From positions 62,001 through 126,000 of the forward strand of contig CALUTU010000001.1 in assembly GCA_944323785.1 (NCBI GenBank): 64,000 nt of DNA, written 5' to 3'. Position numbers and translations under genes: made by a program. The notes below the pieces were generated by a model that saw nothing but the letters and a program-made list of their open reading frames with translations, was not told the origin of the DNA and ran no database searches. Shown piece by piece: positions 36,613 to 57,072 of the stretch. This DNA comes from an uncultured Bacteroidales bacterium. Lineage in GTDB: Bacteria; Bacteroidota; Bacteroidia; Bacteroidales; UBA932. How positions within the stretch are numbered: position 1 is the stretch's first letter; each line of letters opens with the position of its first letter.

Positions 36613-38238
36613 ATGAGAACACTCCTGATTGCCGCAGCGGCCGCAACGCTGCTCTGCTCCGCCTCCTGCTCTGACCGTCCGTCGCCGGTCAGAGCCATCC
36701 TCGACTCCGCAGATTCGCTGATGGCGGTTCAGCCTCAGTCAGCCCTGGACACCCTGCAGTCCCTGGACAGCACCGCACTCAGCCGGACAGGAAAAAGGGA
36801 CAGGGCCGCATACACACTGCTCATGACAGAAGCCCGGTACAAATGCTGGCTGCCCGTGGACTCCGACACATCGATATTCCGGGCCGCTGACTTTTTCAGG
36901 AGAAAAGGCCCTGAGGAACTTTACGCCAGGGCACTCATGATGCAGGGAGCAGTACTGCAGGAAAGAGAGGATCCGGCAGCAGCCCTGGAGGCATTCAAAA
37001 AGGCAGAACCGCTGATTGCCAAGAAAGGAGACCTGGAACAGCTCGGCCTGCTTCACACCAGGATAGGGTCGCTGTACCAGATGACATTTGTCGACAGAGG
37101 ACCGGCAATAAACAGATACCGGAAGGCTGTGGAATGTTTTGAGAAGGGTGGAGTAAACAACAGAAAAGCACTTGCATATATGGCTCTTGCAAGGATTTTA
37201 CTAGTTGATTCTGCTGACTCTGCTCTACAATACATTACACTCGGTATTCAACAAGCCAAAAACAATAATGATCCACTGCAACTGGGTTCCGGTTATGAGT
37301 TACTTTCATGGTATTATCTCCAGACTCAACAGTACCAGGATGCCGTTCGTACATCTACTGACGCTCTCATTATATCGGACACACTTCTACAGTCCACAAA
37401 AACACAGCTCATTACCATTGCTTCATTAGGTTACGTTTCATTGAACAAACCTGATTCCGCCAGACTGCTGCTTCCATTTCTAGAAACACAAAATACAGGA
37501 TTTTCAACCAATTATTTAACTATCAAATACAGACTGGCTGAACTCGAGCAAGACTGGGAAACTGCCTATAAATACAGAGACTCCTCCGCAAATTTGGAAC
37601 AAACTCTTATCAAAAATGGCAAAGCCTTGGGCATGGAAAATTTGGAGAATTACTATGATGCACAGAACAGTAAATTAAAGGCCGAGAACCGCCGCAAAAC
37701 CTCTGCTATACTGTATCTTTCTTTCATACTCATTCTTATAACCTGCAGCCTTGCCGTCACTTTACATTATCTTAAAGTCAATTCAAAACAAAAAAGAGAG
37801 CTCAAAGAATTAAGTTTGATGTTCCTAAAATTATCAGACAAACTGCTTACATCGTACAAAAGCCATAAGCTTCCTGAAAATTTTCAGGAGAAAGCCAGAC
37901 AATTAATAAGTGAAATTTTCCAAGGAAAAGATATACGTTCGACAATCGTCAAATTATCTGAAATCTTACATCCAGGATTCATGGATGCGATACAGAAAAA
38001 GTACCCGATGCTGACCGAAGGAGATCTGTTCATTATTTCCCTTGAACTTTGCGAATTATCTACAAAAAGTATTACCATAATAAGCAAACGGAGTGAGAGC
38101 GCAATATACACGGCAAAGAGCAGAATTGCTCAAAAGACGGGATGTGGAGAATCTTTTTCCGAATTCTTAAACACCGAATTATCTTCGTTTCACACGCTGA
38201 ACTTAAAAAATAATCTTTCAGACAGCTATTTTGACTAA
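36613..38238 (+). CDS. membrane TPR protein with C-terminal helix-turn-helix
   Basis: The 541-residue protein begins with a signal/lipobox-like stretch (LLCSASC). It then has helical TPR-type repeats (about residues 30-345, including AALEAFKKAEPLIAKKG and YRKAVECFEKGG), one transmembrane helix (about 362-386, ILYLSFILILITCSLAVTL) and a C-terminal cytosolic region with a coiled segment and a LuxR-like helix-turn-helix near residues 470-520 (TEGDLFIISLELCELSTKSI, ISKRSESAIYTAKSRIAQK). The layout predicts a one-component regulator that senses outside and acts on DNA inside. It directly precedes the NVEAL/propeller cluster, its likely target. Base composition falls sharply at about 37100-37150, inside the gene. 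Confidence 0.85.
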   Translation: MRTLLIAAAAATLLCSASCSDRPSPVRAILDSADSLMAVQPQSALDTLQSLDSTALSRTGKRDRAAYTLLMTEARYKCWLPVDSDTSIFRAADFFRRKGPEELYARALMMQGAVLQEREDPAAALEAFKKAEPLIAKKGDLEQLGLLHTRIGSLYQMTFVDRGPAINRYRKAVECFEKGGVNNRKALAYMALARILLVDSADSALQYITLGIQQAKNNNDPLQLGSGYELLSWYYLQTQQYQDAVRTSTDALIISDTLLQSTKTQLITIASLGYVSLNKPDSARLLLPFLETQNTGFSTNYLTIKYRLAELEQDWETAYKYRDSSANLEQTLIKNGKALGMENLENYYDAQNSKLKAENRRKTSAILYLSFILILITCSLAVTLHYLKVNSKQKRELKELSLMFLKLSDKLLTSYKSHKLPENFQEKARQLISEIFQGKDIRSTIVKLSEILHPGFMDAIQKKYPMLTEGDLFIISLELCELSTKSITIISKRSESAIYTAKSRIAQKTGCGESFSEFLNTELSSFHTLNLKNNLSDSYFD

Positions 38239-38317
38239 CATAAATAATATGTGCATCAATATTTTTGTAAATGTAAGTTTATAAATTTTCTTACATCTGA
38301 GGATCAATATATTATAA

Positions 38318-38343
38318 ACAAGTTGTAAGACTTCAAAACTTGT
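38318..38343. promoter_or_regulatory. inverted repeat overlapping the -33 region of the DUF3244/NVEAL promoter
   Basis: ACAAGTT (38318-38324) and AACTTGT (38337-38343) are separated by 12 bp. The right arm contains the -33 TTG (38340-38342). It could be the operator of the membrane regulator encoded just upstream. Confidence 0.5.
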
Positions 38344-38370
38344 ATAACTCATAAACATTATTTACATTTG
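38340..38370 (+). promoter_or_regulatory. promoter of the DUF3244 gene and probably the NVEAL cluster
   Basis: TTG (38340-38342), 20 bp and TACATTTG (38363-38370) match the Bacteroidota -33/-7 arrangement. The DUF3244 ATG is 33 nt downstream. The 165-bp region before it is strongly A+T-rich. Confidence 0.6.
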
Positions 38371-38403
38371 CGTATATTAAAACCTAATAAAAACATAGCC
38401 GAT

Positions 38404-38748
38404 ATGAAAAAAACCATTAGTGTTATCATTGCTCTATTAACATCCTCATTGTTATTCGCTGACAATTATGAAATTCTTATTCAGCAGGCAGAGCACCTGA
38501 CGCGCAGTACCTCACAATGCCCGGAAGCATACATTAATACAGATACTGATATATTGAGTATCTCATTCGACTACAACGGTCTCTACACCCTACATATTGA
38601 AAACAGCATGTCAGAGACCGTCTTCCAGTCAGCCCTGCCTGCCAACGGCATGGAATACTTCTACGACCTCTCCGGCATAGGAGAAGGATTCTTCACGCTG
38701 ATAATAAACGGTCCGGGAGGAGAATACTATGGCGAGTTCACATTGTAA
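38404..38748 (+). CDS. DUF3244-like small secreted protein
   Basis: The 114-residue protein starts MKKTISVIIALLTSSLLFA, a signal peptide. The mature part (SFDYNGLYTLHIENSMSETV, GEGFFTLIINGPGGEYYGEF) has the beta-sandwich pattern of DUF3244 proteins of Bacteroidota, whose ending with a Gly-rich strand and final aromatic/hydrophobic residues resembles a minimal sorting-like domain. Function is unknown. It lies between the membrane regulator and the first NVEAL gene; the promoter before it is the first clear one of the cluster. ATG 38404 is chosen over the frame start because it begins the signal peptide and follows the promoter. Confidence 0.75.
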   Translation: MKKTISVIIALLTSSLLFADNYEILIQQAEHLTRSTSQCPEAYINTDTDILSISFDYNGLYTLHIENSMSETVFQSALPANGMEYFYDLSGIGEGFFTLIINGPGGEYYGEFTL

Positions 38749-38880: not shown

Positions 38881-39156
38881 ATGAAACATTTTATTTTTAT
38901 AACAGCCGCTTCACTGCTGCTCTGCGCCGGAGGGGCAGTCCTCTGGGCACACGTCTCCTCGGATGAGTTCCTAGATGCGAATGCCGAGGCGCTCATAGAA
39001 ACACGCGGAGTGGAAGACAGGATTGTTGACTGCTTCTCACAATCCGTATTCAGTTTCGGAGCTTCTTACTGGGATTGCGGTAATTGTCAAAGGTATAAAA
39101 ACCATGCTGGGACAGGTAATACGCGCACCTGTCACCCAGATACTAATCAAGGATAA
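38881..39156 (+). CDS. NVEAL-family small secreted peptide A
   Basis: The 91-residue peptide has a hydrophobic signal (residues 1-24, FIFITAASLLLCAGGAVLWA) followed by HVSSDEFLDANAEAL, the NVEAL-type motif of short Bacteroidota proteins. The C-terminal part has four cysteines spaced C-x14-C-x2-C-x14-C, shared with the other copies and suited to two disulfides. The propeller gene starts 2 nt after its stop and the CGSC thioredoxin-like lipoprotein follows that. NVEAL proteins have no settled function; a secreted signal or effector peptide is inferred. Confidence 0.82.
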   Translation: MKHFIFITAASLLLCAGGAVLWAHVSSDEFLDANAEALIETRGVEDRIVDCFSQSVFSFGASYWDCGNCQRYKNHAGTGNTRTCHPDTNQG

Positions 39157-39158: not shown

Positions 39159-40139
39159 ATGAACACTAAATCCATATTAGGATTTTTCGTATCTCTGTCC
39201 GTACTATTCTCTTGTACGGACAGAGATTATAATGTCATTAAGTCCTTTCCAGAAGAATGTAACGCGTCACTGGTAAAAGAAGTCACATACGATCCCACTG
39301 AGTATTTTATAGGTAACATCACATGGACCAATGGATACTGGATATATGAACTTCAAGAAGAACCATTTTTCGTACTATTGGATAAGGATTATAATGAGAT
39401 AACACGCTTTGGGAGAGAAGGCAATGGGCCAGGAGAATTCCTATTTCCCATACTGTCAAAAACAACTGCTCATACCAACACTGTGGATATTTACTTCTTA
39501 GACAGGGAGACAGGGCGGCTTTACAATGCCTCCATCAATAAAAATGACGGAAATCTGCATTTATCGGAATTAAAAGACTTTGGAAAGAACTTGCGTGAAG
39601 CACATCCTCTCGATGACGGGTGCTACATCTGCAATGGATTTAACAACAGATACTATTTTCTGGAAAAGGATGGAGAAGAACGCTATCTGGAAGGATGGGG
39701 AGAAGAAGTGAATGAAGCTGCGGAACTATCCTACACATACACCCCTAAACTCCAAACCCTCTCGGCTATTAGTCCAGACAACAATTTGCTTGCTATATAT
39801 GGTATCACCCAACAGGCATTGATACTGCACAACATAGACGGGACGCACATCAAGACCGTATACATCGGTGAGGAGCCTAACCCTCAAATATATTTCAGCC
39901 AAACCGGGACATTCGGCGGCGTTGTTTTTATAGGAAACACAATCGTAGCACTCTACAACTCGGTGAAAGACGAATGCTCATACCTGATGGTATTCGATCG
40001 GGAACTGTCTCCATTAAAGCGGTACAGACTTCCCATCAACGGAAACATCCTTACCGGCAATCCTGAAGAAGGCGTTGTCACTGTACTCAGTTACGACGAC
40101 GAGAAAATGTACTGCTACGACTTATCCGAATGGCTATGA
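39159..40139 (+). CDS. BF3164/TolB-like propeller lipoprotein A
   Basis: The 326-residue protein has a lipobox (VLFSC, about residue 19) and the shared paralog features: DYNVIKSFPEE, EVTYDPTEYF, FGREGNGPGEF, GRLYNASINKNDGN, CNGFNNRYYFLEKDGEERYL, EGWGEEVNEAAELS and the C-terminal YDLSEWL. It sits directly after NVEAL A, and its TGA overlaps the ATG of the thioredoxin-like gene (ATGA), indicating translational coupling of the three. Residues from about 265 onward are nearly identical at DNA level to copy C, a sign of gene conversion. Surface or periplasmic binding of the paired peptide is a hypothesis. Confidence 0.83.
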   Translation: MNTKSILGFFVSLSVLFSCTDRDYNVIKSFPEECNASLVKEVTYDPTEYFIGNITWTNGYWIYELQEEPFFVLLDKDYNEITRFGREGNGPGEFLFPILSKTTAHTNTVDIYFLDRETGRLYNASINKNDGNLHLSELKDFGKNLREAHPLDDGCYICNGFNNRYYFLEKDGEERYLEGWGEEVNEAAELSYTYTPKLQTLSAISPDNNLLAIYGITQQALILHNIDGTHIKTVYIGEEPNPQIYFSQTGTFGGVVFIGNTIVALYNSVKDECSYLMVFDRELSPLKRYRLPINGNILTGNPEEGVVTVLSYDDEKMYCYDLSEWL

Positions 40140-40690
40140 GAACAATGTACTTTCTGACTGCAGCGGCGGTAATCCTGCCGCTGCTTCTTTCCGGCTGCGG
40201 TTCCCGTCACGACGTGAAGAACATGATGCGTCAGATGAGGGAGTCCGAGCTGGTCATTCCCGCCGACCTGCGCCGGATTGACGGATATTCCATCTCCGAG
40301 GCCCCGCCAGAACGCAAGGACGCCGCCCTGGTTATCTACTATGACTCGCTGGTGTGCGGCAGCTGCAGGGTCGACAAGTTGGCTCAGCTGGATACGCTGT
40401 TCGGACTCGAAAGGACTTTCCCTGATTTCGAAGTGTTGGTGGTTTTCTCTCCGAAACCTGCCGAAGTAGAGGAGATACAGGTTCTGTTGATGAAGCGCAG
40501 GTACCCTCACCCGGTGTACCTGGACTACTCCGGCAGTTTCAGGGAGTCCAACTCTTTCATACCGGACGACAGCCGCTTCCACACTTTCCTGACAGGCAAG
40601 GACGGCAAGCCGGTATTCATCGGAGACCCCTACGTCTCGAAAAGCATGTGGGACCTCTTCATGTCTGCGGTAAGACAAATCTGCCTGTAA
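40136..40690 (+). CDS. thioredoxin-like lipoprotein with CGSC motif (intact copy)
   Basis: From the ATG overlapping the preceding stop, the product has 184 residues. The signal ends in lipobox LLLSGC. ALVIYYDSLVCGSCRVDKL places a CGSC redox pair at the end of the first beta strand as in thioredoxin folds, and FEVLVVFSPKPAEVEEIQVL, HPVYLDYSGSF and TGKDGKPVFIGDP fit the later strands, though the usual cis-Pro loop is not obvious. It could reduce, oxidise or isomerise disulfides in the envelope; the four-cysteine NVEAL peptide encoded two genes upstream is an attractive substrate. Degenerate copies of this gene lie at 42017, 43361 and 46164. Confidence 0.75.
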   Translation: MRTMYFLTAAAVILPLLLSGCGSRHDVKNMMRQMRESELVIPADLRRIDGYSISEAPPERKDAALVIYYDSLVCGSCRVDKLAQLDTLFGLERTFPDFEVLVVFSPKPAEVEEIQVLLMKRRYPHPVYLDYSGSFRESNSFIPDDSRFHTFLTGKDGKPVFIGDPYVSKSMWDLFMSAVRQICL

Positions 40691-40723: not shown

Positions 40724-41014
40724 ATGAAAAAGTTAATTTTTGCAGCAGCCATCTCACTGCTGCTCTGCGCCGGAGGGGCAGTCCTCTGGGCGCACGTCTC
40801 CTCCGATGAGTTCTTCGATGCAAATGCAGAGGCACTAATTGATACACGTGGCGTGAACTACAATATCGTCGACTGCTACTCAGAATCTGATCATACCGGC
40901 AAGTCTGGAGATTCTTATTATGACTGCGGCAAATGCGAAAGAATAACCGGTGCTAAAGGGGACGGAAAAAGAAGAGAATGTGTAGTAATAGATGGTGGAG
41001 GAGGCACAGACTGA
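40724..41014 (+). CDS. NVEAL-family small secreted peptide B
   Basis: The 96-residue peptide has signal MKKLIFAAAISLLLCAGGAV, the motif DANAEAL and four cysteines spaced C-x16-C-x2-C-x14-C. Its first 75 bp, with the preceding leader, are almost identical to those of NVEAL D at 43649. The C-terminal tail is Gly-rich (IDGGGGTD). It is followed after 4 nt by propeller B. Confidence 0.82.
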   Translation: MKKLIFAAAISLLLCAGGAVLWAHVSSDEFFDANAEALIDTRGVNYNIVDCYSESDHTGKSGDSYYDCGKCERITGAKGDGKRRECVVIDGGGGTD

Positions 41015-41018: not shown

Positions 41019-42020
41019 ATGATGAACAGGCTTATTCCCCTTATGCTGTTGATATGGTTGCTGCCTGGGTGCAGCAACCATTCCTTTGAAGTGATCAAGA
41101 AGTTTCCGGTGGAAAATAGTATCGGGCCAGTAAAGACAATCGAATATGACGTAGTAAACTACCCTATCTGGGAGATTGCCGAAATCGGAGATTTTTATCT
41201 ATTGTCTTTATTTAGTGATACAGGATTCGGTTTTGCTGTCACGGATAAGTCCTTCAACCAGATAAGCAGACTTTGCCGCTTAGGCAACGGGCCCGGAGAG
41301 TTTCTGAGCACTGAATTCAGGGGCCTGATTTCAGTGTCTGAAGATACTTTGAAGTTTTACGTACACGACCTGCTCAAAGGACGCCGCTGCATCGCTGCAG
41401 TATGCCTTAAATCAGGTAAAAGCAAGATAACCGAGACAGACAGCTTCGCCCCATGGACAAGGGCATACTATCCGCTTGGAAATGGAAAATATTTAATAAG
41501 CAACAATAACAACCGTTACTACCTGACAGACAACTCAGGGAATAAAACGTATTTCGAAGGCTGGGGAGATGACATAAACGAAGCCGTGGAAAATCAGGAA
41601 TGGTACATTCCTGACATCCAGTCAACAGAAACCTTCAATTCCGACAGCTCGAGACTCCTGATTAACGACAGGAATTCTCCTGCCTTATGGGTTCACTCTA
41701 CTGATGGAACACTTGTCAAGAATGTCTATATTGGAAAAGGTCCCGAAGATTTGGATCGCGATACATATAGGGGCGGACATTTAGGCGCTTCATACTTGGG
41801 CGATGACAGCATCGTTACTATGTATGTCGAATCCGATGACATGGGGGAAACTGACAGCTCATGGCTGCTTATATTCGACAAAGACCTGAATCCCAAGGCA
41901 AGACTCTCACTCCAAGGGGAAAACAAAGGCTTTACTCTCAACCGGAAGACAGGAATACTTCTCATGCTCGGATATGATTACGAGGAAATTCGTGTATACG
42001 ACTTGTCTGAATGGCTATGA
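41019..42020 (+). CDS. BF3164/TolB-like propeller lipoprotein B
   Basis: Starting at ATG 41019 (MMNRLIPLMLLIWLLPGC) it has 333 residues with a lipobox at LLPGC. Shared features are EVIKKFPVEN, IEYDVVNYP, LGNGPGEFLS, SNNNNRYYLTDN, YFEGWGDDINEAVENQEWY and YDLSEWL at the end. It is more divergent from copies A, C and F, which resemble each other. Its stop overlaps the ATG of a nearly deleted thioredoxin-like gene. The partner of NVEAL B by position. Confidence 0.82.
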   Translation: MMNRLIPLMLLIWLLPGCSNHSFEVIKKFPVENSIGPVKTIEYDVVNYPIWEIAEIGDFYLLSLFSDTGFGFAVTDKSFNQISRLCRLGNGPGEFLSTEFRGLISVSEDTLKFYVHDLLKGRRCIAAVCLKSGKSKITETDSFAPWTRAYYPLGNGKYLISNNNNRYYLTDNSGNKTYFEGWGDDINEAVENQEWYIPDIQSTETFNSDSSRLLINDRNSPALWVHSTDGTLVKNVYIGKGPEDLDRDTYRGGHLGASYLGDDSIVTMYVESDDMGETDSSWLLIFDKDLNPKARLSLQGENKGFTLNRKTGILLMLGYDYEEIRVYDLSEWL

Positions 42021-42099: not shown

Positions 42100-42375
42100 A
42101 TGAAAAATTTAATTATTTTCAGCAGTATATCTTTCCTACTCTGCACAGGCGGAATAGCTATCAAGGCACACATCACTTCTGATGATTTCCTGAACGCAAA
42201 TGCAGAGGCTCTCTTAGAAAGCAGGAGCCTTCCAGATATAACTGTCAATTGTTTCATGGAAACCGAATTCAAAATGGGGCATTCATTCTATTATTGCTTT
42301 GACTGTAGGAGATATATTAATGCAGCAGGTATCGGAAAAATGATGACATGTCAACTTAACTTTAATCAAGAGTGA
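42100..42375 (+). CDS. NVEAL-family small secreted peptide C
   Basis: The 91-residue peptide has signal MKNLIIFSSISFLLCTGGIA, the motif NANAEALLESR and four cysteines spaced C-x14-C-x2-C-x14-C. It is the most A+T-rich of the four. Its stop lies 11 bp before the chosen start of propeller C and overlaps a GTG in that frame. Confidence 0.82.
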   Translation: MKNLIIFSSISFLLCTGGIAIKAHITSDDFLNANAEALLESRSLPDITVNCFMETEFKMGHSFYYCFDCRRYINAAGIGKMMTCQLNFNQE

Positions 42376-42386: not shown

Positions 42387-43364
42387 ATGAATAAAAGATA
42401 CTTCTGGATTATAGTAGCAATATTCGCGCTATACTCTTGTGCTAAAAGGGAATATTACACCATCCATTCTTTTCCAAAGGAGGGGGATGCCATACTCCTA
42501 AAAGAAATCAAGTATGACCCTACAGAATATTTTTTGGCTGATATTTCGTGGGCTAACGGATATTGGATATATGAACTACGAGATGAACCATTTTTCATAT
42601 TGTTGGATAGGGATTTAAACGAAATTGCCCACTTTGGTAGAAAAGGTAATAGCCCGAATGAGTTTCTGTCTCCTATGTTGTCCAATGTGATAAGCGACTC
42701 TAACGCAGTGAATATTTACTTCTATGACTGGGATAAGGGACGGCTTTACAACGCATCCGTAAACAAAAACAACGGAGACGTGCACATCTCGGAACTAAAA
42801 GACTTCGGCAAGAGCATGCGCTACGTTCGCGCTCTGGATGACGGACGCTATATATGCAGCGCTGAGAACAATAGGTACTATTTTCTGGAAAAGAATGGAG
42901 AGGAGCACTATCTGGAAGGATGGGGAAATGAAGTGAACGAAGCAGTAGAACTGTCTTCCACTTATGTCCCCACATTTCAGTCACGTTCTGATGTAAGCCC
43001 TGACAACAACTTGTTTGCCGTATACAGTATCAGTCATCAAGTTTTAATCCTGCATGACATGAACGGGAAGCGCATCAACACTGTCTACATCTCCAAAGAG
43101 CCGGATATGGGACTTTACGACAGTGATGTCGGATCATTCAACGGCATCACGTTTCTAGGAGATGTAATAGTGGCATTATACGAGTCAGTGGAAGATGAAT
43201 GCTCATACCTGATGGTATTCGATCGGGAACTGTCTCCATTAAAGCGGTACAGACTTCCCATCGACGGAAACATCCTTACCGGCAATCCTGAAGAAGGCGT
43301 TGTCACTGTACTCAGTTACGATGACGAGAAAATGTACTGCTACGACTTATCCGAATGGCTATGA
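42387..43364 (+). CDS. BF3164/TolB-like propeller lipoprotein C
   Basis: From ATG 42387 it has 325 residues (MNKRYFWIIVAIFALYSC, lipobox LYSC). GTG 42372, overlapping the NVEAL stop, would add five residues. Shared features include YTIHSFPKEG, IKYDPTEYF, FGRKGNSPNEF, GRLYNASVNKNNGD, CSAENNRYYFLEKNGEEHYL and YDLSEWL. Its middle is nearly identical to copy F (46302-47285) and its end to copy A, so the gene is a mosaic. The stop overlaps the ATG of the internally deleted thioredoxin-like gene. Confidence 0.83.
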   Translation: MNKRYFWIIVAIFALYSCAKREYYTIHSFPKEGDAILLKEIKYDPTEYFLADISWANGYWIYELRDEPFFILLDRDLNEIAHFGRKGNSPNEFLSPMLSNVISDSNAVNIYFYDWDKGRLYNASVNKNNGDVHISELKDFGKSMRYVRALDDGRYICSAENNRYYFLEKNGEEHYLEGWGNEVNEAVELSSTYVPTFQSRSDVSPDNNLFAVYSISHQVLILHDMNGKRINTVYISKEPDMGLYDSDVGSFNGITFLGDVIVALYESVEDECSYLMVFDRELSPLKRYRLPIDGNILTGNPEEGVVTVLSYDDEKMYCYDLSEWL

Positions 43365-44971: not shown

Positions 44972-45002
44972 TTTGATTTTTAAAATGTTTGAGTTATATT
45001 TG
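44972..45002 (+). promoter_or_regulatory. internal promoter before propeller E
   Basis: TTTG (44972-44975), 19 bp and TATATTTG (44995-45002) match the Bacteroidota promoter pattern well. The 227-bp interval 44928-45155 holds this promoter, a 36-codon frame (45025-45135) that looks like debris of the thioredoxin-like gene start, and the repeated leader. Confidence 0.55.
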
Positions 45003-49847: not shown

Positions 49848-50945
49848 ATGAAAAAACACCACGCCATAGCTCTAGGAGCAGCCGTAGCCGCGGCCCTGCT
49901 CGTCACAGCATCCTGCGGAAACAAAGAAGTGGAAGAGGATACCCTCACCCGCCTGTCCCAGGCCGTAGAGGGCAACTACGTCGATACCATGATACTCCGC
50001 CTGACCGATTTCCGCCGCCAGACCATAAGCAACGGAAAGCTGGTGGCCGCCCGCAAGAGTCTCCTGCGTTTCAACACCTCCGGCACCATCTCCGAAGTTA
50101 ATTTCACCAACGGGCAGAGCGTCAGAAAAGGAGACCTCATAGCATGTCTGGATCCCGAAGCCGCCTCCATAACCCTGGCACAGGCGGAGAACGCCCTGAA
50201 AAAAGCAGAGATAGACCTCAACGATGTGCTCATAGGCTTCGGTTATGGAAACTCTGATACCACCTCCGTACCCGCCCAGGTCATGGCCATAGCCCGCACC
50301 CGCTCCGGATATGCCGATGCAGAGCAGAACTGGCGCAAGGCCCGCTATGACTATGAGGGTACCCGCATCACCGCGCCTTTCGACGGCAAGGTGGCCAGCG
50401 TAAAGGGCCGTGTCTACGAGAACGCTCCCGCCGAGGAATTCTGTACCGTGATAGACGACAGCCGCTTCGAAGTGACATTTCCCCTGCTGGAATCCGAGAT
50501 AGCCTCGGTGCGCACAGGGCTTTCGGTGAAGCTGTCTCCGTTCAACGACCCCGGCCGGACCTATACCGGTCACATCACCGCCGTCAACCCCACTGTGGAC
50601 GAAAAGGGACAGATACAGATCACAGCGTCTGTAACCAATACCGGAGACGGACGCCTGATGGACGGCATGAATGTCAGGGTCCTCGTCGAAGAGATCATTC
50701 CCGGCCAGCAGGTAATCCCCAAGAGCGCGGTGGTCATGCGTGACAACCAGGAGGTCCTCTTCGTCTACGAGCCCTCCGACAGCTCCTCACGCTGGGTCTA
50801 TGTCGACATACTCATGTCCAACAGTGACAGCCACGTAGTGCGCGCCAACCAGGAACGCACCGCCGTCCTCAATCTGGGCGACCCGGTCATCATATCCGGC
50901 AACCTCAACCTCGCACACGAATCTAAAGTCATAGTAAGACAATGA
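49848..50945 (+). CDS. RND adaptor (membrane fusion protein), lipoprotein
   Basis: The 365-residue protein is a lipoprotein (LLVTASCGN) with the usual adaptor order: biotinyl/lipoyl half (SGTISEVNFTNGQSVRKGDL), helical hairpin (LAQAENALKKAEIDLNDVLI), second lipoyl half (RITAPFDGKVASVKGR), beta-barrel and C-terminal domain. It bridges the RND pump to the TolC duct. Its stop overlaps the RND1 start (ATGA). Confidence 0.93.
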   Translation: MKKHHAIALGAAVAAALLVTASCGNKEVEEDTLTRLSQAVEGNYVDTMILRLTDFRRQTISNGKLVAARKSLLRFNTSGTISEVNFTNGQSVRKGDLIACLDPEAASITLAQAENALKKAEIDLNDVLIGFGYGNSDTTSVPAQVMAIARTRSGYADAEQNWRKARYDYEGTRITAPFDGKVASVKGRVYENAPAEEFCTVIDDSRFEVTFPLLESEIASVRTGLSVKLSPFNDPGRTYTGHITAVNPTVDEKGQIQITASVTNTGDGRLMDGMNVRVLVEEIIPGQQVIPKSAVVMRDNQEVLFVYEPSDSSSRWVYVDILMSNSDSHVVRANQERTAVLNLGDPVIISGNLNLAHESKVIVRQ

Positions 50946-53900
50946 TCCGCAAGCTCATAAAACGTCCCGTAGCGGTGTCGATGGTCCTCTTCGCCGTGGC
51001 GGTGCTGGGAGCAGTGTCCATCAAGCTCATCCCGGTATCGCTCATGCCCGACGTGGACATTCCTCAGATCACAGTCCAGGTCAAGGTAGACGGCAGCTCC
51101 GCCAGGGAGATGGACCAGTACCTCCAGGGACTGCGCCGCGAGCTGATGCAGATCCCCTCACTGACAGACATCCGCTCGCAGTCCGAGAGCGGAGTGGGCA
51201 TCATACGCATGAGCTTCGAATACGGAACCGACATCGACTTCACGTTCGTTGACGTGAACGAGCGCATCGACCGCTCGCTGTCATCCCTGCCTGAAGGAGC
51301 CGAAAGACCCAAGGCCATAAAGTCCAGTGCGACGGACATCCCCGCCTTCTTCATCAACATGACCGTCGCGGACTCATCCCGCATCATGGAGCTCAGCCGC
51401 CTGGCCTCCAGCGTCATCTCCAAGCGCATAGAGCAGATACCTGAGGTGGCCATGGTCGACCTGAGCGGACTGGTGTTCCCGCAGCTGCTCATCATTCCGG
51501 ACAATGACAGACTGACGGCCATCGGCATCAGTCCCGCAGACCTCGCGGCAGCCATCGAGTCCAACAACGTCCAGCTGGGCAACCTCTCCATCCGGGACGG
51601 ACAGTACCACTGGAACGTGCGCTTCCAGTCAGAGCTCAACTCCAAGGAGGACATCGAGCGCATAAGGCTCAATGTCAACGGCCGCATCTACCTCTTTTCA
51701 GAGCTGGCCAAGGTTATCGAGCAGCCGGGAAGCGACAACTGCATCATCCGCTCCGACGGTTCCAGGGCGGTCAGCATGGCCATCATCAAGCAGAGCGACG
51801 CAAGGATGAACACCCTGCGGGAAAAGCTGTACGACAGGATTGAGGAATTCGGCAACGACTATCCTGGAGTGAAGTTCACCATCACCAGGGACCAGACCGA
51901 GCTGCTGCGCTATACCATAGAGAACCTGGAGCAGAACCTGGTGGCCGGCATCATCCTGGCCAGTATCGTTATCCTGCTGTTCATGCGCAACTTCCGCTTC
52001 TCGCTGCTGATCATACCCACCATCATCGTCTCGCTGCTCACCTCCATGCTTGCCCTGTATGTCATGGGACTGAGCATCAACATCATCTCTCTTGCCGGCC
52101 TCATCATCAGTGTCGGCATGATGGTGGACAACTCCATCATCGTCATAGACAATATCTCCCAGCGGTGGGAGCGGGGCGAGAGCCTCGAGGACGCGGTGGC
52201 CATCGGTTCCGGAGAGGTATTCGCGCCAATGCTCAGCTCCATTCTCACCAACTGCGCCGTATTCGTACCGCTGGTCTTCCTAAGCGGCATAGCCGGAGAG
52301 ATATTCTTCGACCAGGCCGTGGCCATCACCGTGGGACTGTTCTCCTCCCTGCTCTTCGCCGTTCTGGTCGTACCCGTCTACTACTATGCCCTGTACCGCA
52401 AGAGAGGACGGAAGATGGACAACCGCTACCTGGCGAAGATAGCCCGGTACACCGAGCTGGGTCCCGCATACGAGAAAGCCCTCAAATGGACATTCCGCCA
52501 CCAGAAGACAGTCATAGCCCTGATGGCCGTGAGCATCCCCCTCTCCGTGCTGCTGTTCATGGAACTGGACAAGAGCACCTTCCCTCCCGTCACCAAGAGC
52601 GACATCATCCTCAACATAGACTGGAACCGTCCCCTGAGCATAGAGGAGAACGACAAGCGCACGGAGGCCCTGGCCGCATCCCTCCGCAACCATGCCGCCC
52701 AGACTACCCAGATGTCAGGAACCCAGCAGTTCCTGATGCCCCATACCAGGGACATGAGCCAGAGCGAGGCCCAGGTCTACTTCCTTGCCCATTCTCCCGC
52801 AGGACTGGACAGCCTCATGGAAGAGGCAGCCGTATATCTGAGGACGCACCACCCTGAAGCGGCATTCAGCTTCTCGGACGCCGGAAACCTGTTTACCCTC
52901 ATGTTCTCCGACAACTCCGCGAAACTCACAGTCCAGATAAGCGGCCGAGACGGGAAGACCCCTCCCCCGGACAAGCTCAACTCCATCCTGGCCGCCATCA
53001 CTGAAGCCGTTCCCGGGCTGGAGGCCGCTCCCGTCCGCTGGCAGGAGCAGGTGGTTCTCATGCTCGATGTAGAGAAAATGTCCCTGTACAACATCTCCTA
53101 CAGCGAAGTACTCAGCACCCTGAGAAAGCTCACCCGGGAGGACCACATCTTCTCCATTGCCACCGGAGACTATTCCATCCCGGTAGTCATGGGAGACGGC
53201 GGTGACGGCAACGGACTGCTCTCGGGAAGCGTGCTCAACCGCGAGGGAACGGAGATTCCCCTGAACACATTCATCACCGAAGGCCGCAGCCGGGACCTGA
53301 AGACCATCATTTCCGGCATGTCCGGCAACTATTACCCTCTCGACCTGAATATCCCCGATCAGCAGGTACCGGAAGTCATAGCCGCAGCCAGAGAACTGGC
53401 GGTGGAGGACGGAAGCTGGGACGTGACATTCAACGGGTCGTACTTCTCCAGCAGAGACACCATCAATGAGCTGATGCTCATAGCCGTAGTCTCCATACTG
53501 CTGCTGTATTTCATCCTGGCAGCCCAGTTCGAGTCCCTTATTCAGCCTCTGATAATCCTCTCGGAGATCGTGGTGGACATCTTCGGAGCACTTCTGCTGC
53601 TCTGGATATGCGGCGGAGGCATCAACGCCATGTCGATGATCGGCATAGTGGTCATGAGCGGTATCGTCATCAACGACTCGATTCTCAAGGTGGACACCAT
53701 CAACCGCCTGCGCAAGGAGAACGGATACCACCTCCTGAGAGCGATCATGACCGGAGGATCCAGGAGACTCAACCCCATCCTGATGACCACCCTCACCACG
53801 GTACTGGCCATGGTACCTTTCCTGACCAAGGGAGACATGGGCTCGGACCTGCAGTTCCCCCTGTCGATAGTGATGATAGGCGGTATGATGGTCGGCCTGA

Positions 53901-53968
53901 TCGTCAGCATCTTCGGTATTCCGCTGATTTACTATCTGATATATAAGAAGCAAGACAGAAACCGGTGA
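50942..53968 (+). CDS. RND efflux permease 1
   Basis: The 1008-residue protein has the HAE-type RND layout: TM1 at the start (KRPVAVSMVLFAVAVLGAVS), a large periplasmic loop with porter domains, TM2-6 with the TM4 motif GMMVDNSIIVIDNI, a second loop and TM7-12 (GIVVMSGIVINDSILKVDTI). One acidic residue of the usual TM4 pair is kept. It exports substrates from the periplasm using the proton or sodium gradient. It overlaps RND2 in ATGA fashion, suggesting equal expression of the two, as in heteromeric MdtBC-type pumps. Substrate is unknown. Confidence 0.94.
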   Translation: MIRKLIKRPVAVSMVLFAVAVLGAVSIKLIPVSLMPDVDIPQITVQVKVDGSSAREMDQYLQGLRRELMQIPSLTDIRSQSESGVGIIRMSFEYGTDIDFTFVDVNERIDRSLSSLPEGAERPKAIKSSATDIPAFFINMTVADSSRIMELSRLASSVISKRIEQIPEVAMVDLSGLVFPQLLIIPDNDRLTAIGISPADLAAAIESNNVQLGNLSIRDGQYHWNVRFQSELNSKEDIERIRLNVNGRIYLFSELAKVIEQPGSDNCIIRSDGSRAVSMAIIKQSDARMNTLREKLYDRIEEFGNDYPGVKFTITRDQTELLRYTIENLEQNLVAGIILASIVILLFMRNFRFSLLIIPTIIVSLLTSMLALYVMGLSINIISLAGLIISVGMMVDNSIIVIDNISQRWERGESLEDAVAIGSGEVFAPMLSSILTNCAVFVPLVFLSGIAGEIFFDQAVAITVGLFSSLLFAVLVVPVYYYALYRKRGRKMDNRYLAKIARYTELGPAYEKALKWTFRHQKTVIALMAVSIPLSVLLFMELDKSTFPPVTKSDIILNIDWNRPLSIEENDKRTEALAASLRNHAAQTTQMSGTQQFLMPHTRDMSQSEAQVYFLAHSPAGLDSLMEEAAVYLRTHHPEAAFSFSDAGNLFTLMFSDNSAKLTVQISGRDGKTPPPDKLNSILAAITEAVPGLEAAPVRWQEQVVLMLDVEKMSLYNISYSEVLSTLRKLTREDHIFSIATGDYSIPVVMGDGGDGNGLLSGSVLNREGTEIPLNTFITEGRSRDLKTIISGMSGNYYPLDLNIPDQQVPEVIAAARELAVEDGSWDVTFNGSYFSSRDTINELMLIAVVSILLLYFILAAQFESLIQPLIILSEIVVDIFGALLLLWICGGGINAMSMIGIVVMSGIVINDSILKVDTINRLRKENGYHLLRAIMTGGSRRLNPILMTTLTTVLAMVPFLTKGDMGSDLQFPLSIVMIGGMMVGLIVSIFGIPLIYYLIYKKQDRNR

Positions 53969-56900
53969 TGAAGCAAGTCAAGATACCTTCGTTCTCAGTC
54001 CTGCTGATCTTCGCCGTGCTCATCACCGTAGGCGCGGCGCTGATCCCGTCGCTCAATCTGCAGTACATGCCCCGGAGCAAGCAGCAGCAGCTCTCCATCT
54101 CATATTACTGGCAGAACGCTTCGGCGCGTGTCATCGAGAGCGAGGTGACTTCCAAGATAGAAGGCTATATCTCTTCCATCAGCGGCATAGAGGAAATCGT
54201 ATCCGACAGCCGTAAGGGAAGAGGCTCCATCACCCTGACACTCAAGAAAAAAGAAGACGTAGACGCCGTCCGCTTCGAGGTATCCTCGGCCATCCGCTCC
54301 CTGTACGACAAGCTGCCAGCGGAAGTAAGTTACCCTGAACTGTCCGTATCGGCCTCGGGAACACAGCTCGACCCGGTGCTCATGTACACCATCAACGCCG
54401 ACCTGCCCACCAACAGGATAGAGCAGTACGTCAATGACTACATCATCAAGGACCTGGCCCTTATAGACGGGGTGCACTCAGTGGAACTTTCCGGAGCCAC
54501 ACCGGACTACATGCACATAACCCTCAGTTCCGAGAAGATACGCGCGGCCGGAATCAACACGTACCAGGTGTTTCAGGCTGTCTCCTCCTACCTTACCGGC
54601 AGCAGCGTCATAGGCAGCGCCCCCGCCTTCAATCCTGACGAGGAGCCTGACATCATCCTGCACAACGCTCCAATGGACTTCGAACTGCTGCCCGTAGCCA
54701 ACTCCTCCGGGCGCATCATCCGCCTGATGGACGTGGCGGACATCCAGATCCAGCAGATGCCTCCCAGCTCCTACAGCCGCATCAACGGACTGAACACCAT
54801 CAACATCAGCATATACCCGGAAGAGTCCGTCAACACCATCAAGCTCTGCGCCACCATAGAGTCCGTCATGCACCGTCTCGAGGCCGGCTTCCCGGAATCA
54901 TTCTCCGCCCTGAAATCCTACGATGTCTCCACAGATATCCAGGAAGAGGTGGACAAACTCGTGCGCAGAAGCCTGCTGTGCGTACTTATCCTCCTGATAT
55001 TCATATTCATTACCTCGCTGAGCCTGCGGTACACCTTCCTTATAGGCCTGACCCTGCTGGTCAACATCATAACAGCCGTAATATTCTACGTACTCCTGGA
55101 TATAGACCTGCATGTCTACTCCTTGGCCGGTATCTCCATATCCCTGAGCATCATCATCGACAACTCGATCATCATGGTCTCACACTACTCCTACTACAGG
55201 GACCGGAAAGTATTCCTGGCCATACTTGCAGCCCTGCTGACCACGATAGGCTCGCTGGCCGTGATATTCTTCCTGCCTGAGGAGCAGAAAGAGATACTCT
55301 CGGATTTCTCCTCGGTGATCATCATCAATCTGAGCGTGTCGATGATAGTGGCCCTGTTCTTCGTCCCCGCCCTTCTGGACTACCTGCCCGTCAAGTCCGA
55401 AAGCATCGCATTCTCCATAAAGCGCAGACGCAGGATAGTACGCTTCTCCCAGTGGTACGCCGTATTCATCTTCTATATCAAGAAATTCAACTGGGCAGTC
55501 ATCATCCTGTTCGTGGGCGCCTTCGCAGGCTCGTTCCTGCTTTTCCGCAAGAGCCTGGACGGCTTCGCATCCATGTTCCGCGAGCCCGAGCGCCCCGTAC
55601 TTTACATCTCCTCCGGCATGCCGGAAGGCTGCAGCGTCCAGCAGCTCAACGATATCATGGTCTATATGGAAAATTTCCTGGCGGGATTCGACGAGATAAA
55701 GATGTTCCGCACCAGCATCAGTTCCTACCGCTCCGGACAGATCACAGTAGAGTTCACAGACGAGGCCCTCAAGACTCCCTTCCCCTCCATCCTCAAGCAG
55801 CAGGTCATCCGCAAGGCAATTGCCTACGGAGGCGCCAACTGGAGAGTCAGCGGAGTGGATGACCAGAATTTCAGCAACTTCATCGGAAGCGGTTCCTACA
55901 AGAGCGGCAACATAATCATCACCGGCTACAACTACGACATGCTCTACGGCTACTGTGAGGACCTGGCCGCCAGACTGTCATCGAACCCGAGAATCAACGA
56001 CATCTCCATCGAGGGTCCCTACGACTACGGTTCGGCCGCATCTGCCCGCGAATACCTCATCACCTACGACTATGACAGGATGGCGCTCTATGACATCAGC
56101 CCCGTCTCCGCCTTCTCCACACTCAGCGAGCGGCTGTACTCCAGCAGTGTCGGATACTTCACGGACAGCACCGGCATGAGGACAGAAGTAAGACTGGTCT
56201 CGGACGACAGCGAGGAATTCGACGTATGGCATCTGGAGAACGAATACCTGGCCATCGACAGTTCCGACATCCGTTTTGCCGAGATAGGCTCCATAGACAG
56301 CCGTAACTCAGGCAACAATATCTACCGGCGCAATCAGGAATACACCCTTCACGTCAGGTACAACTTCATCGGCTCCTACAAGCTGGAAGAGCGCCTGATG
56401 GAATCGGAAATCGAACGGCTCAACACATCGGTGCTCCCGATGGGATTCAAGGCCTCCTCTCCCGAATATGACTGGATGCAGCAGGCCAAGCGGCAGTGGC
56501 TTCTGCTGATACTGGTAACCGCCATCATCTACATGATATGCGCCGTGCTCTTCGAGTCGCTGCTGCAGCCGCTGGCCATAATATCGCTGATACCCGTCTC
56601 GTTCATCGGGATATTCCTGGCGTTCAGGCTCACGGAGACCACCTTTGACCAGGGAGGCTTCGCGTCGATGATCATGCTCGCCGGCATCGTGGTCAACGCC
56701 GGCATCTACATCGTGAACGAGTACAACCGCATGCCCGCTCACAGACGCAGCTTCATACGGGCCTACAACCACAAGATCATCCCGATATCCCTGACGATAC
56801 TCTCGACAGTCCTCGGACTCGTGCCCTTCCTGCTCGACGGCAAGGAGGAAGTCTTCTGGTTCGCCTTCGCGATAGGCACCATGGGCGGTATGCTCTTCTC

Positions 56901-57072
56901 CTATGCGGCGCTTATCGTGCTGCTGCCTATGATTATGCCCGGCAAAGCCATCATTCCACCCGGTTCCGGTGGAAATGGGGAGCCGCGTAGAAAACGAAGC
57001 CGAGAAGGGAAACGAGGCTTAGGACGGCACCTGCCAGGTAGGCGTAGGAGAAAGACAGACGCTCCCCTATAA
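53968..57072 (+). CDS. RND efflux permease 2
   Basis: The 1034-residue protein (GTG 53965 or ATG 53968) is a second, diverged RND protein: LIFAVLITVGAALIPSLNLQ in TM1, SIIIDNSIIMVSHYSYYRDR in TM4 and MLAGIVVNAGIYIVNEYNRM in the second half. It lacks a full acidic TM4 pair. One adaptor and one TolC serve two RND proteins, so they may form mixed trimers. The last about 40 residues are basic and proline-rich (GNGEPRRKRSREGKRGLGRH) and lie in a 122-bp overlap with the convergent MFS gene, so the tail is probably an extension acquired by losing the original stop. Confidence 0.92.
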   Translation: MKQVKIPSFSVLLIFAVLITVGAALIPSLNLQYMPRSKQQQLSISYYWQNASARVIESEVTSKIEGYISSISGIEEIVSDSRKGRGSITLTLKKKEDVDAVRFEVSSAIRSLYDKLPAEVSYPELSVSASGTQLDPVLMYTINADLPTNRIEQYVNDYIIKDLALIDGVHSVELSGATPDYMHITLSSEKIRAAGINTYQVFQAVSSYLTGSSVIGSAPAFNPDEEPDIILHNAPMDFELLPVANSSGRIIRLMDVADIQIQQMPPSSYSRINGLNTINISIYPEESVNTIKLCATIESVMHRLEAGFPESFSALKSYDVSTDIQEEVDKLVRRSLLCVLILLIFIFITSLSLRYTFLIGLTLLVNIITAVIFYVLLDIDLHVYSLAGISISLSIIIDNSIIMVSHYSYYRDRKVFLAILAALLTTIGSLAVIFFLPEEQKEILSDFSSVIIINLSVSMIVALFFVPALLDYLPVKSESIAFSIKRRRRIVRFSQWYAVFIFYIKKFNWAVIILFVGAFAGSFLLFRKSLDGFASMFREPERPVLYISSGMPEGCSVQQLNDIMVYMENFLAGFDEIKMFRTSISSYRSGQITVEFTDEALKTPFPSILKQQVIRKAIAYGGANWRVSGVDDQNFSNFIGSGSYKSGNIIITGYNYDMLYGYCEDLAARLSSNPRINDISIEGPYDYGSAASAREYLITYDYDRMALYDISPVSAFSTLSERLYSSSVGYFTDSTGMRTEVRLVSDDSEEFDVWHLENEYLAIDSSDIRFAEIGSIDSRNSGNNIYRRNQEYTLHVRYNFIGSYKLEERLMESEIERLNTSVLPMGFKASSPEYDWMQQAKRQWLLLILVTAIIYMICAVLFESLLQPLAIISLIPVSFIGIFLAFRLTETTFDQGGFASMIMLAGIVVNAGIYIVNEYNRMPAHRRSFIRAYNHKIIPISLTILSTVLGLVPFLLDGKEEVFWFAFAIGTMGGMLFSYAALIVLLPMIMPGKAIIPPGSGGNGEPRRKRSREGKRGLGRHLPGRRRRKTDAPL

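What the first reader, a model, noticed from the sequence alone, without database searches (positions are those of the whole stretch)
36613..57072. Candidate peptide signalling/export module: TPR-HTH membrane regulator, NVEAL peptides, propeller lipoproteins, CGSC lipoprotein and a double-RND pump
Seen: regulator, DUF3244, four repeats of NVEAL then propeller lipoprotein (three followed by a thioredoxin-like lipoprotein or its remnant), two further propellers of the same type, one divergent propeller, then TolC-adaptor-RND-RND. Genes are packed with ATGA overlaps or gaps of a few bp, and propeller G ends 10 bp before tolC. Known: NVEAL, BF3164/TolB-like and DUF3244 families are Bacteroidota-specific and of unknown role. 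Inference: each unit makes a secreted disulfide-bonded peptide and a surface binding protein, controlled by a regulator that spans the membrane; the pump may export a product of the system or be a passenger.
Basis: partly seen in the sequence, partly recalled or inferred. Interest (0 to 1): 0.85.

Follow-up and report, generated by a model that had tools for sequence, protein, structure and literature searches.

The report
Bacteroidales cassette making cysteine-rich secreted peptides
A gut bacterium carries four back-to-back copies of a little-known gene set that seems to make, fold and export small cysteine-rich peptides, each with its own partner lipoprotein, and related sets recur in distant relatives, which makes their role testable.

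Summary
The window (a Coprenecus-like Bacteroidales genome) has four precursor-peptide/propeller-lipoprotein pairs, one intact thioredoxin-fold CxxC lipoprotein plus deleted copies, further propellers, and a TolC-adaptor-RND-RND pump. The peptides fail Pfam's NVEALA test but look like divergent relatives: leader profile match, and a peptide that passes NVEALA's cut-off fills the same slot in a sister genome. Leaders are conserved while mature parts diverge (34/37 versus 10/55 residues, peptides 2 and 4); about 7% of the mature part is cysteine. Peptide, propeller and CxxC lipoprotein recur together across Bacteroidales, with an S26 signal peptidase at 7 of 26 outside loci; propellers and CxxC genes were absent from 20 control stretches. 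Inside the genus the double-RND pump is a fixed neighbour, but order-wide 17 of 19 genomes with a strong CxxC hit also have the RND2 type (44 of 247 overall), and 13 of 20 pump loci carry associated genes against 0 of 20 controls. Best reading: Sec-inserted precursors are oxidised and cleaved in the periplasm and expelled by the RND-TolC pump, propellers being specific partners. The TPR-HTH regulator belongs to a promiscuous family. Signal versus weapon is undecided. No paper in the searched library contains the word NVEALA.

The parts
32455..33486 (+). Propeller lipoprotein PROP0, part of the conserved chromosomal scaffold
   Evidence: 33% identical to propeller A; a propeller stands in the same place, before the glycosyltransferase, in 9 of the genus genomes fetched (labelled PROPE 35-36%, where my own PROP0 query was in a wrong frame)
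34063..35436 (+). Glycosyltransferase, scaffold gene, probably not part of the system
   Evidence: 82-98% identical relatives at the same place; family by eye, no family search
35550..36608 (+). 6-bladed propeller lipoprotein, DUF5128 type; upstream of the pump in 8 of 8 genus genomes with this pump in the fetched stretches
   Evidence: PF17170 E 5.6e-11; synteny
36613..38238 (+). Regulator: lipobox-type signal, TPR superhelix, one TM-length helix, C-terminal LuxR/GerE-like HTH
   Evidence: TPR/SNAP hits, GerE in 4 of 9 homologues, not in this copy, AF2 pLDDT 82.6, Foldseek TPR hits incl. NprR and Rap
38340..38370 (+). Bacteroidota-type promoter-like motif before DUF3244
   Evidence: TTG-N20-TACATTTG; weak; consensus recalled
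38404..38748 (+). DUF3244 small exported protein
   Evidence: PF11589 E 1.7e-6, over cut-off
38881..39156 (+). Precursor peptide NV1
   Evidence: A2 alignment, invariant N, A, L of the motif and four invariant Cys
39159..40139 (+). Propeller lipoprotein A
   Evidence: PF15869 E 4.2e-9
40136..40690 (+). CxxC (CGSC) thioredoxin-fold lipoprotein, only intact copy
   Evidence: AF2 pLDDT 90.6; Foldseek best E 1.3e-5; both active-site Cys invariant in 14 of 14 aligned
40724..41014 (+). Precursor peptide NV2
   Evidence: leader 34/37 identical to NV4, mature 10/55
41019..42020 (+). Propeller lipoprotein B
   Evidence: PF15869 E 7.2e-4, below cut-off; aligned in A3
42100..42375 (+). Precursor peptide NV3
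42387..43364 (+). Propeller lipoprotein C
   Evidence: PF15869 E 3.9e-7; 65% identical to A
43361..43612 (+). Remnant of the CxxC lipoprotein, active-site part deleted
   Evidence: blastn 94-95% to both ends of 40136-40690
43649..43936 (+). Precursor peptide NV4
43887..44927 (+). Propeller lipoprotein D
   Evidence: no Pfam hit; aligned in A3
44973..45002 (+). Bacteroidota-type promoter-like motif before propeller E
   Evidence: TTG-N19-TATATTTG; weak; consensus recalled
45156..46160 (+). Propeller lipoprotein E
   Evidence: no TolB_like hit; aligned in A3
46176..46226 (+). Scrap of the 5' part of the CxxC lipoprotein gene
   Evidence: blastn 90% over 51 bp
46302..47285 (+). Propeller lipoprotein F; its first 31 bp match the start of NV1 (97%)
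   Evidence: PF15869 E 3.3e-7
47276..48286 (+). Propeller lipoprotein G
   Evidence: PF15869 E 2.7e-17
48297..49835 (+). TolC-type outer membrane factor
   Evidence: PF02321 E 4.6e-37
49848..50945 (+). Periplasmic adaptor (MFP)
   Evidence: PF13437 E 3.1e-14
50942..53968 (+). RND transporter 1
   Evidence: PF00873 E 6.3e-162
53965..57072 (+). RND transporter 2, divergent partner
   Evidence: PF00873 E 4.1e-92; relatives at E<=1e-60 in 44 of 247 order genomes

Best explanation
This is an expanded copy of a cassette, found here and there across Bacteroidales, that makes, matures and exports small cysteine-rich peptides. Proposed path: each precursor enters the inner membrane by its N-terminal hydrophobic leader (Sec); its cysteine-rich mature part folds in the periplasm with the CxxC thioredoxin-fold lipoprotein as redox partner, one intact copy serving all four peptides; the mature part is cut off near the N-x-x-A-L motif, in some relatives by an S26 signal peptidase encoded alongside; the free peptide is taken from the periplasm by the two-RND/adaptor/TolC pump and expelled. 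Each peptide has its own propeller lipoprotein as a specific binding partner (carrier, receptor or immunity protein). Shown: gene content, conserved order, leader/mature divergence, predicted thioredoxin fold, order-wide linkage. Inferred: disulfides, cleavage site, transport, binding.
For: Leader conserved, mature part diverged: NV2/NV4 34/37 versus 10/55 residues. Cys 6.8% (4 window and 3 sister peptides) and 8.7% (15 canonical-type peptides) of the mature part against 0.48% in six neighbouring proteins; even Cys number in 18 of 22. CxxC lipoprotein: both Cys invariant in 14 of 14, thioredoxin fold. One intact copy beside four peptides and seven open propeller frames A-G, as expected of a shared enzyme next to specific partners. 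Around 26 CxxC loci outside the genus, within 8 kb: propeller 22, motif peptide 14, S26 7, transglutaminase-like 8, O-antigen-ligase-like 6; in 20 control stretches 0 of each except 1 motif peptide. Nine of the 26 were found through PF14055, so peptides there are by selection; the other 17 give propeller 14, motif peptide 6, S26 3, transglutaminase-like 3, ligase-like 3. S26 confirmed by Pfam in 3 of 3 exemplars and Wzy_C in 2 of 2, MauE at one locus. Pump: 17 of 19 strong CxxC genomes also have the RND2 type, 44 of 247 overall; 13 of 20 pump loci hold propeller, CxxC, S26, transglutaminase-like or ligase-like genes against 0 of 20 controls. Pump parts within about 4 kb of cassette genes in G004, G015, G246, G153, G081, G122, G124, G051 and G060.
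Against: Inside the genus the pump stands in a fixed place whether or not a peptide cassette is there: 2 of 8 genomes have a cassette between DUF5128 propeller and tolC, and in one of these (G015) the peptide lacks the motif. Several genus cassettes have no pump beside them (L041, L043, L099-L101, L103-L105). The promoter-like motif at 44973 would put the pump with propellers E-G rather than with the peptides. No S26 gene was found in this array. 7 of 20 pump loci show none of the five gene types, some on short contigs. CxxC genomes G079 and G206 lack an RND2 hit at E<=1e-60; with the six weak CxxC genomes kept the overlap is 17 of 25. Of 15 PF14055 stretches 9 have a CxxC hit, so 6 NVEALA-type hits stand without one. 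The Fisher tests ignore phylogeny, and searches are taken, not proven, to be the same draw of 247. The transglutaminase label rests on one sub-threshold hit.
Confidence: 0.5

Rival explanations
1. Peptide communication (a sub-reading of the best explanation, not exclusive of it): the mature peptides are pheromones. The propeller is the surface or periplasmic binding protein, and the lipobox-TPR-TM-HTH regulator (or a histidine kinase/response regulator pair in other genomes) reads the bound peptide, so that a TPR receptor senses peptide in the periplasm and its HTH acts in the cytosol.
For: Regulator directly upstream; near 8 of 13 genus CxxC loci. The TPR model matches NprR-NprX (best E 1.3e-5) and Rap structures (7.6e-5), as well as eukaryotic LGN (4.9e-6). 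Kinase/regulator-like pairs next to peptides in G122 and G206 (HATPase confirmed for one). Mature parts diversify between units.
Against: TPR folds match each other, so NprR/Rap hits prove little. The regulator family is promiscuous and gives no match in G004. Kinases are not clearly enriched (4 of 26 CxxC loci, 2 of 20 controls; response regulators 5 and 1).
Confidence: 0.22
2. Peptide antimicrobials (also a sub-reading): each unit is a bacteriocin-like peptide with a cognate immunity or decoy lipoprotein (the propeller). The pump exports the peptide or protects the producer; repeated peptide/partner units are the usual toxin/immunity expansion.
For: Tandem peptide/partner pairs with diversified mature parts. 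C39 peptidase-type genes beside the pump in L198 and L209. Extra propellers without peptides (E-G, PROP0) would fit orphan immunity genes.
Against: Immunity proteins are usually small (recalled); here about 330-residue propellers, also of a type found beside the pump without any peptide. The frame of the mature part is conserved across genomes (four invariant Cys in 7 of 7).
Confidence: 0.25
3. The pump is an unrelated efflux pump and its nearness to the cassette is a chromosomal accident; only the peptide-propeller-CxxC triad is a functional unit.
For: Fixed pump position in the genus with or without cassette; several cassettes without a pump.
Against: Order-wide co-occurrence and repeated adjacency in different families.
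Confidence: 0.25
4. The peptides are structural or envelope-stress small proteins, not released: they stay membrane-anchored by the leader, and propellers, CxxC lipoprotein, S26 and O-antigen-ligase-like genes form an envelope-modification system.
For: The leader's hydrophobic stretch could be a permanent anchor; S26, Wzy_C and transglutaminase-like genes near relatives would fit envelope modification.
Against: High divergence of the mature part with a conserved leader is unusual for a structural protein.
Confidence: 0.12

Closest known systems
NVEALA protein family (PF14055), Bacteroidota
   Same: Hydrophobic leader, N-x-E-A-L type motif, Cys-rich tail; similar neighbours; the L104 peptide passes the Pfam cut-off in the same slot in a sister genome
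   Different: Window peptides lack the last A of the motif, share with sisters a VDCFSQS/YYDCGxC-like frame, and miss the Pfam model even at E 1
Export of heat-stable enterotoxin II by MacAB-TolC in E. coli (PMC8277102, passage; in PMC5985334 I saw pump passages and a citation in the reference list)
   Same: A small peptide expelled through a tripartite TolC pump; that its periplasmic form is disulfide-bonded is recalled, not read
   Different: There an ABC pump; here two RND proteins, plus propeller lipoproteins and a CxxC lipoprotein
MdtBC-type heterotrimeric RND pumps (PMC8277102, passage)
   Same: Two RND proteins; that mdtB and mdtC are neighbours in one operon is recalled
   Different: The RND2 partner is divergent and linked to propellers and peptides; heteromer formation untested
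RRNPP peptide receptors (NprR, Rap)
   Same: TPR superhelix next to peptide genes; structural hits
   Different: Lipobox signal, TM-length helix and C-terminal HTH; RRNPP receptors are called intracellular or cytoplasmic, Gram-positive (starts of the abstracts of PMC10075063 and PMC12998947)
Trx-NHL proteins (NHLRC2; 7djk, which I recall as SOQ1)
   Same: Thioredoxin domain beside a propeller; both among the Foldseek hits of the CxxC lipoprotein (E 2e-3 and 2.8e-4)
   Different: There one fused polypeptide; no peptide genes known to me

Membership tests
NVEALA (PF14055) | Score over Pfam cut-off (27 bits) | tested here: not met
   No match at E<=1 for the four window peptides; own genome no match at E<=0.001
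NVEALA (PF14055) | Leader with the motif homologous to the family leader | tested here: met
   hhalign A2 against A6 (canonical-type peptides) probability 94.9, E 4.4e-8, columns 1-45 only
NVEALA (PF14055) | Same slot before a propeller lipoprotein | tested here: met
   Of ten genus peptides scanned 1 is over cut-off (L104, 31.7 bits), 3 below, 6 without match; gene order; 13 of 15 PF14055 stretches have a propeller-model hit at E<=0.01
TolB_like (PF15869) / DUF5128 (PF17170) propellers | Pfam score over cut-off | tested here: inconclusive
   A, C, F, G and the upstream DUF5128 protein over cut-off; B below; D and E none, but they align with A over full length
Thioredoxin/TlpA-like oxidoreductase | Thioredoxin fold with CxxC | tested here: met
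   AF2 pLDDT 90.6; Foldseek E 1.3e-5 (PG_2175), 1.8e-4 (TlpA), 6.0e-4 (ResA); both Cys invariant. No Pfam thioredoxin hit in the window copy
Thioredoxin/TlpA-like oxidoreductase | Redox activity on the peptides | not testable with these tools
   Needs biochemistry
RND tripartite efflux pump | ACR_tran transporter, adaptor and outer membrane factor together | tested here: met
   PF00873, PF13437, PF02321 over cut-off; gaps -4 to 12 bp
RRNPP receptor | Cytosolic TPR receptor | tested here: not met
   Lipobox SASC at residues 16-19, hydrophobic helix about 363-386 read from the sequence, C-terminal HTH; topology is predicted, not measured
RRNPP receptor | TPR fold of the NprR/Rap kind | tested here: inconclusive
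   Foldseek NprR 1.3e-5, Rap 7.6e-5, but LGN 4.9e-6 and designed TPRs score alike
C39-exported (double-glycine) bacteriocin system | C39 ABC exporter in the locus | tested here: not met
   None labelled among the called genes of window 32000-58200; C39 domains beside the pump in L198, L209
LuxR/GerE regulator | GerE domain | tested here: inconclusive
   4 of 9 homologues hit at E<=0.1, best 1.4e-6; window copy none

The most novel reading that the evidence does not exclude
A Gram-negative peptide-communication system of a new kind: Sec-exported, disulfide-rich NVEALA-type peptides are matured in the periplasm, released by a dedicated two-RND/TolC pump, caught by paired propeller lipoproteins and read by a membrane-spanning TPR receptor whose HTH lies in the cytosol, so that peptide is sensed without being imported.
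Probability: 0.12. Interest if true: 0.92.

Novelty: new variant of a known kind. Interest (0 to 1): 0.68.

Why it matters
NVEALA peptides and these propellers are counted as families of unknown function. In the open-licence library searched, no paper contains NVEALA or DUF5128, DUF4221 or 'TolB-like 6-blade'; three contain BF3164 or DUF3244, and the passages read are table entries without a function. Tying these families to a thioredoxin-fold lipoprotein, a signal peptidase and an RND-TolC pump turns several orphans into one pathway with clear predictions: a released peptide, a shared maturation enzyme, a pair-specific propeller and a pump with a native peptide substrate. In gut Bacteroidales such peptides could be signals between cells, weapons, or molecules seen by the host. 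It would also give a natural job to a class of RND pumps that annotation calls drug or metal efflux.

Tried and rejected
Window peptides as direct Pfam or NCBIfam members: rejected at sequence level. sigma-70 promoter and terminator scans gave no more than shuffles (15 promoter-like against 21.1; 15 terminator-like against 14.9), so only the Bacteroidota-type motif is used, as weak evidence. Reading the pump as a plain passenger (my view) was dropped after the reverse search. Reading the regulator as module-specific was dropped. Kinase enrichment was not supported. The named-genome scan with A1 gave 6 loci, used for the genus name.

Choices that bear on the counts. The 26 CxxC loci are 9 of 15 PF14055 stretches (the 6 without a CxxC hit, L070, L071, L073, L076, L078, L082, left out) and 17 of 20 stretches (the weak-hit ones L157-L159 left out). 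The six weak CxxC genomes (G041, G071, G096, G098, G175, G239) were left out of the 19; the test with all 25 is given too. The 20 pump loci come from 19 of the 44 RND2 genomes: 14 high-scoring ones (three of them, G124, G093, G252, also CxxC genomes) and 6 added because their genomes carry the CxxC gene. The 20 controls are evenly spaced stretches picked by me in four genomes, not random draws; they are 19 kb each, and whole stretches are counted, whereas loci count genes within 8 kb of the anchor. In the RND2 search only about 3 candidates per genome were scored, in the A4 search up to 13, so misses are possible. Gene choice favours frames already labelled. L141 and L148 (no called propeller or peptide) and L151 (one motif peptide, probably chance) are kept as propeller misses. 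The label C39ABC in L105, L203 and one control means likeness to a whole ABC transporter and is not counted as C39. DUF3244 reads 0 through a label mismatch in my script; the recount gives 5 loci. L029's thiol protein was too divergent to be called and is the fourteenth, uncounted genus locus. The PROP0 query was in a wrong frame. VIA-align was not available.
Full report
What is there. The array lies in a 1.97 Mb draft genome (87% complete). Reading along the + strand: propeller PROP0, glycosyltransferase, DUF5128 propeller, regulator, DUF3244, then four peptide/propeller pairs, then propellers E, F, G, tolC, adaptor, RND1, RND2. Peptide and propeller are 2, 4 and 11 bp apart or overlap by 50 bp. 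The larger gaps are before DUF3244 (165 bp), before NV1 (132), B to NV3 (79), D to E (228) and E to F (141). Bacteroidota-type promoter-like motifs stand in the first and fourth of these, not before tolC. So the pump is probably transcribed with propellers E-G, and the peptides from their own promoter; this is inference from motifs.

The peptides. Each has a hydrophobic start region, a motif with invariant N, A and L, and a tail with four invariant cysteines (one sister copy, L043, has five). NV2 and NV4 share 34 of 37 leader residues and 10 of 55 mature residues; NV1 and NV4 30 of 37 and 13 of 53. Cys makes up 6.8% of the mature part in these 7 peptides and 8.7% in 15 canonical-type ones, against 0.48% in six neighbouring proteins; the number is even in 18 of 22. 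This is the signature of secreted precursor peptides. They are not NVEALA by Pfam score, but their leaders match a profile of canonical-type peptides (probability 94.9). Of ten further genus peptides scanned, L104's passes the Pfam cut-off (31.7 against 27 bits) in the same slot, three score below it and six have no match.

The thiol lipoprotein. The model of 40136-40690 (pLDDT 90.6) is a thioredoxin fold; Foldseek's best hits are PG_2175 (1.3e-5) and, further down, TlpA and ResA. Both active-site Cys are invariant in 14 of 14 aligned relatives. In the window one copy is intact; a second has lost its middle with the active site, a third is a 51-bp scrap. The seven propeller frames A to G are open. 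A shared enzyme and specific partners would leave just this record; that is inference.

Conservation in the genus. Propeller A relatives at E<=1e-5 occur in 12 of 18 same-genus relatives and 0 of 20 genomes of other genera, by a single-sequence search. Of 19 genus genomes 10 carry the thiol lipoprotein (15 places, one the window's remnant) and 6 carry this peptide subfamily (9 places); 9 of 9 peptides are followed by a propeller. Within 8 kb of the 13 genus loci with a called thiol gene: propeller 13, motif peptide 10, regulator 8, DUF3244 5, S26 signal peptidase 4, pump parts 3. L029, the fourteenth locus, has regulator, DUF3244, a Cys-rich peptide, propeller and a divergent CxxC protein, but its thiol gene was not called.

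Conservation in the order. PF14055 itself was found in 6 of 119 order genomes. Of 15 stretches fetched around those hits 13 have a propeller-model hit and 9 a thiol hit at E<=0.01. The thiol profile A4 hits 25 of 247 genomes, 19 of them strongly. Clustering the called genes of 80 loci (26 thiol, 20 pump, 14 genus, 20 control) brought up, as families shared by thiol and pump loci, propellers, S26 signal peptidases, a transglutaminase-like lipoprotein (weak Pfam support), an O-antigen-ligase-like protein (one exemplar with TPRs), the peptides and the pump. Control stretches gave 0 of 20 for propeller, thiol, S26, transglutaminase-like and ligase-like genes, 1 for motif peptides and 2 for RND1-like genes. 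The controls come from G223, G170 and G122, which have a thiol hit, and G213, which has only the pump. Nine of the 26 thiol loci were picked through PF14055; the other 17 show propellers at 14 and motif peptides at 6.

The pump. In 8 genus genomes (G000, G007, G009, G010, G012, G014, G015, G017) it stands at one chromosomal place, with the DUF5128 propeller upstream in 8 of 8, but with a thiol cassette between them in only 2 (G000, G015). G004 has a more divergent pump (41-55% identical) beside a triad. The genus alone says passenger. The reverse search says otherwise: RND2 relatives at E<=1e-60 occur in 44 of 247 genomes, and in 17 of the 19 strong thiol genomes (Fisher 1e-12; with all 25 thiol genomes 17 of 25, 4e-9; both uncorrected for phylogeny and taking the two draws of 247 as the same). 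Of 20 pump loci read, 13 hold at least one of propeller, thiol, S26, transglutaminase-like or ligase-like genes, against 0 of 20 controls (p 6e-6); without six loci that I had added because their genomes carry the thiol gene it is 8 of 14 (p 2e-4). Clear cases: peptide-propeller-TolC-MFP-RND1-RND2 in G124 (L192); thiol gene next to RND2 in G051 (L194); thiol-S26-two transglutaminase-like-MFP-RND2-RND1 in G122 (L207); thiol gene next to MFP-RND1-TolC in G246 (L145). Loci without: L191, L197, L199, L200, L201, L202, L209, some on short contigs.

The regulator. Its model is a long TPR superhelix, a TM-length helix and a C-terminal helical domain (pLDDT 82.6). Four of nine homologues hit GerE, not the window copy. 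Foldseek gives LGN first (4.9e-6) and, among bacterial proteins, NprR with its peptide (1.3e-5) and Rap (7.6e-5). Five of the six homologues start with a lipobox-like signal (the sixth, L033, is cut short), so the TPR part should face the periplasm; this is prediction. But matches per genus genome range from 0 to 17 (fragments included). Of 14 further stretches with regulators, 4 have a DUF3244 model hit (L243, L247, L248, L251) and 2 a propeller hit (L243, L249); the rest stand before other, mostly secreted-looking genes, by eye fimbrillin-like in L239. It is better seen as a plug-in regulator of surface cargo.

How it most likely works. Sec insertion, periplasmic oxidation with the thiol lipoprotein, cleavage near the motif (an S26 enzyme is encoded alongside at 7 of 26 outside and 4 of 13 genus loci; none was found in this array, so another enzyme must act here), RND-TolC release, propeller as specific partner. 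RND pumps load from the periplasm (recalled), which suits a Sec-delivered peptide; MacB-family TolC pumps are described as secreting heat-stable enterotoxin II (PMC8277102, passage). What the peptide does outside is open between signal and weapon. The rivals 'communication' and 'antimicrobial' are sub-readings, so the odds given do not sum to one.

Literature. NVEALA gives 0 papers, and DUF5128, DUF4221 and 'TolB-like 6-blade' give 0. NVEAL/BF3164/DUF3244 gives 3: PMC1887533 (passage: BF3164 listed as putative lipoprotein in a table of group-specific proteins), PMC6653060 (passage: a table entry on type VI secretion) and PMC10434189 (passages). '6-bladed beta-propeller' with Bacteroides and operon gives 4, of which I read passages of PMC10434189 only; with Bacteroidales 0; combinations with O-antigen ligase, signal peptidase and RND give PMC10434189 only; TPR with LuxR, Bacteroides and quorum sensing gives 0. 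PMC10434189 lists, in its B. thetaiotaomicron iron table, an O-antigen ligase protein (BT0662) and a propeller (BT0664), the latter -4.2 with 0.353 beside it, and a TolC-adaptor-RND set (BT0678-80, -6.8 to -3.1 with 0.002-0.015); in the passages seen it does not link them. One search (RRNPP, listing and abstract starts) showed nothing on Bacteroidota receptors, but those papers were not read. The library holds open-licence papers only.

Limits. Draft metagenome assemblies; phylogeny not corrected; the motif-peptide finder is a simple pattern; labels such as transglutaminase-like, fimbrillin-like and glycosyltransferase are weak or by eye.

Noticed in passing
window 32000-32300: Several copies of a palindromic ACCTTCGGAAGGTG-like element in longer direct repeats just upstream of propeller PROP0 (seen by eye).
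   Followed up: no
L239 (G000:C9:63000-82000): A regulator of the same TPR-HTH family stands before five lipoproteins that look fimbrillin-like by eye; a second paralogue lies about 8.6 kb further on.
   Followed up: partly
L247 5188-7486, L248 5481-7791, L251 5324-7671, L243 3185-5488: Regulator-DUF3244 pair as a front end to other cargo, suggesting that the pair is a unit of its own.
   Followed up: partly
L198 11194-11643, L209 6370-8562: C39 peptidase or C39-ABC exporter genes beside the double-RND pump, which hints at peptide cargo.
   Followed up: partly
L080 3504-4613: A MauE/DoxX-like membrane protein between the thiol lipoprotein and the S26 gene, a possible electron partner for disulfide formation.
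   Followed up: no
L068 8496-9365: Thiol lipoprotein fused to a DUF1573 domain; other CxxC copies of similar length (about 280-300 aa) may be fused too.
   Followed up: partly
L039 154-2519 and L143 6831-9132: Gene pairs that look by eye like IS21 transposase and helper close to peptide cassettes, a possible route of spread.
   Followed up: no
L046 8960-10036 (G000, about 16 kb beyond the array): Another propeller-like gene, 23% identical to propeller G, downstream of the window.
   Followed up: no
window 46302-46332: Propeller F begins with the first 31 bases of peptide NV1 (97%), perhaps a trace of a deletion that fused a peptide start to a propeller.
   Followed up: yes
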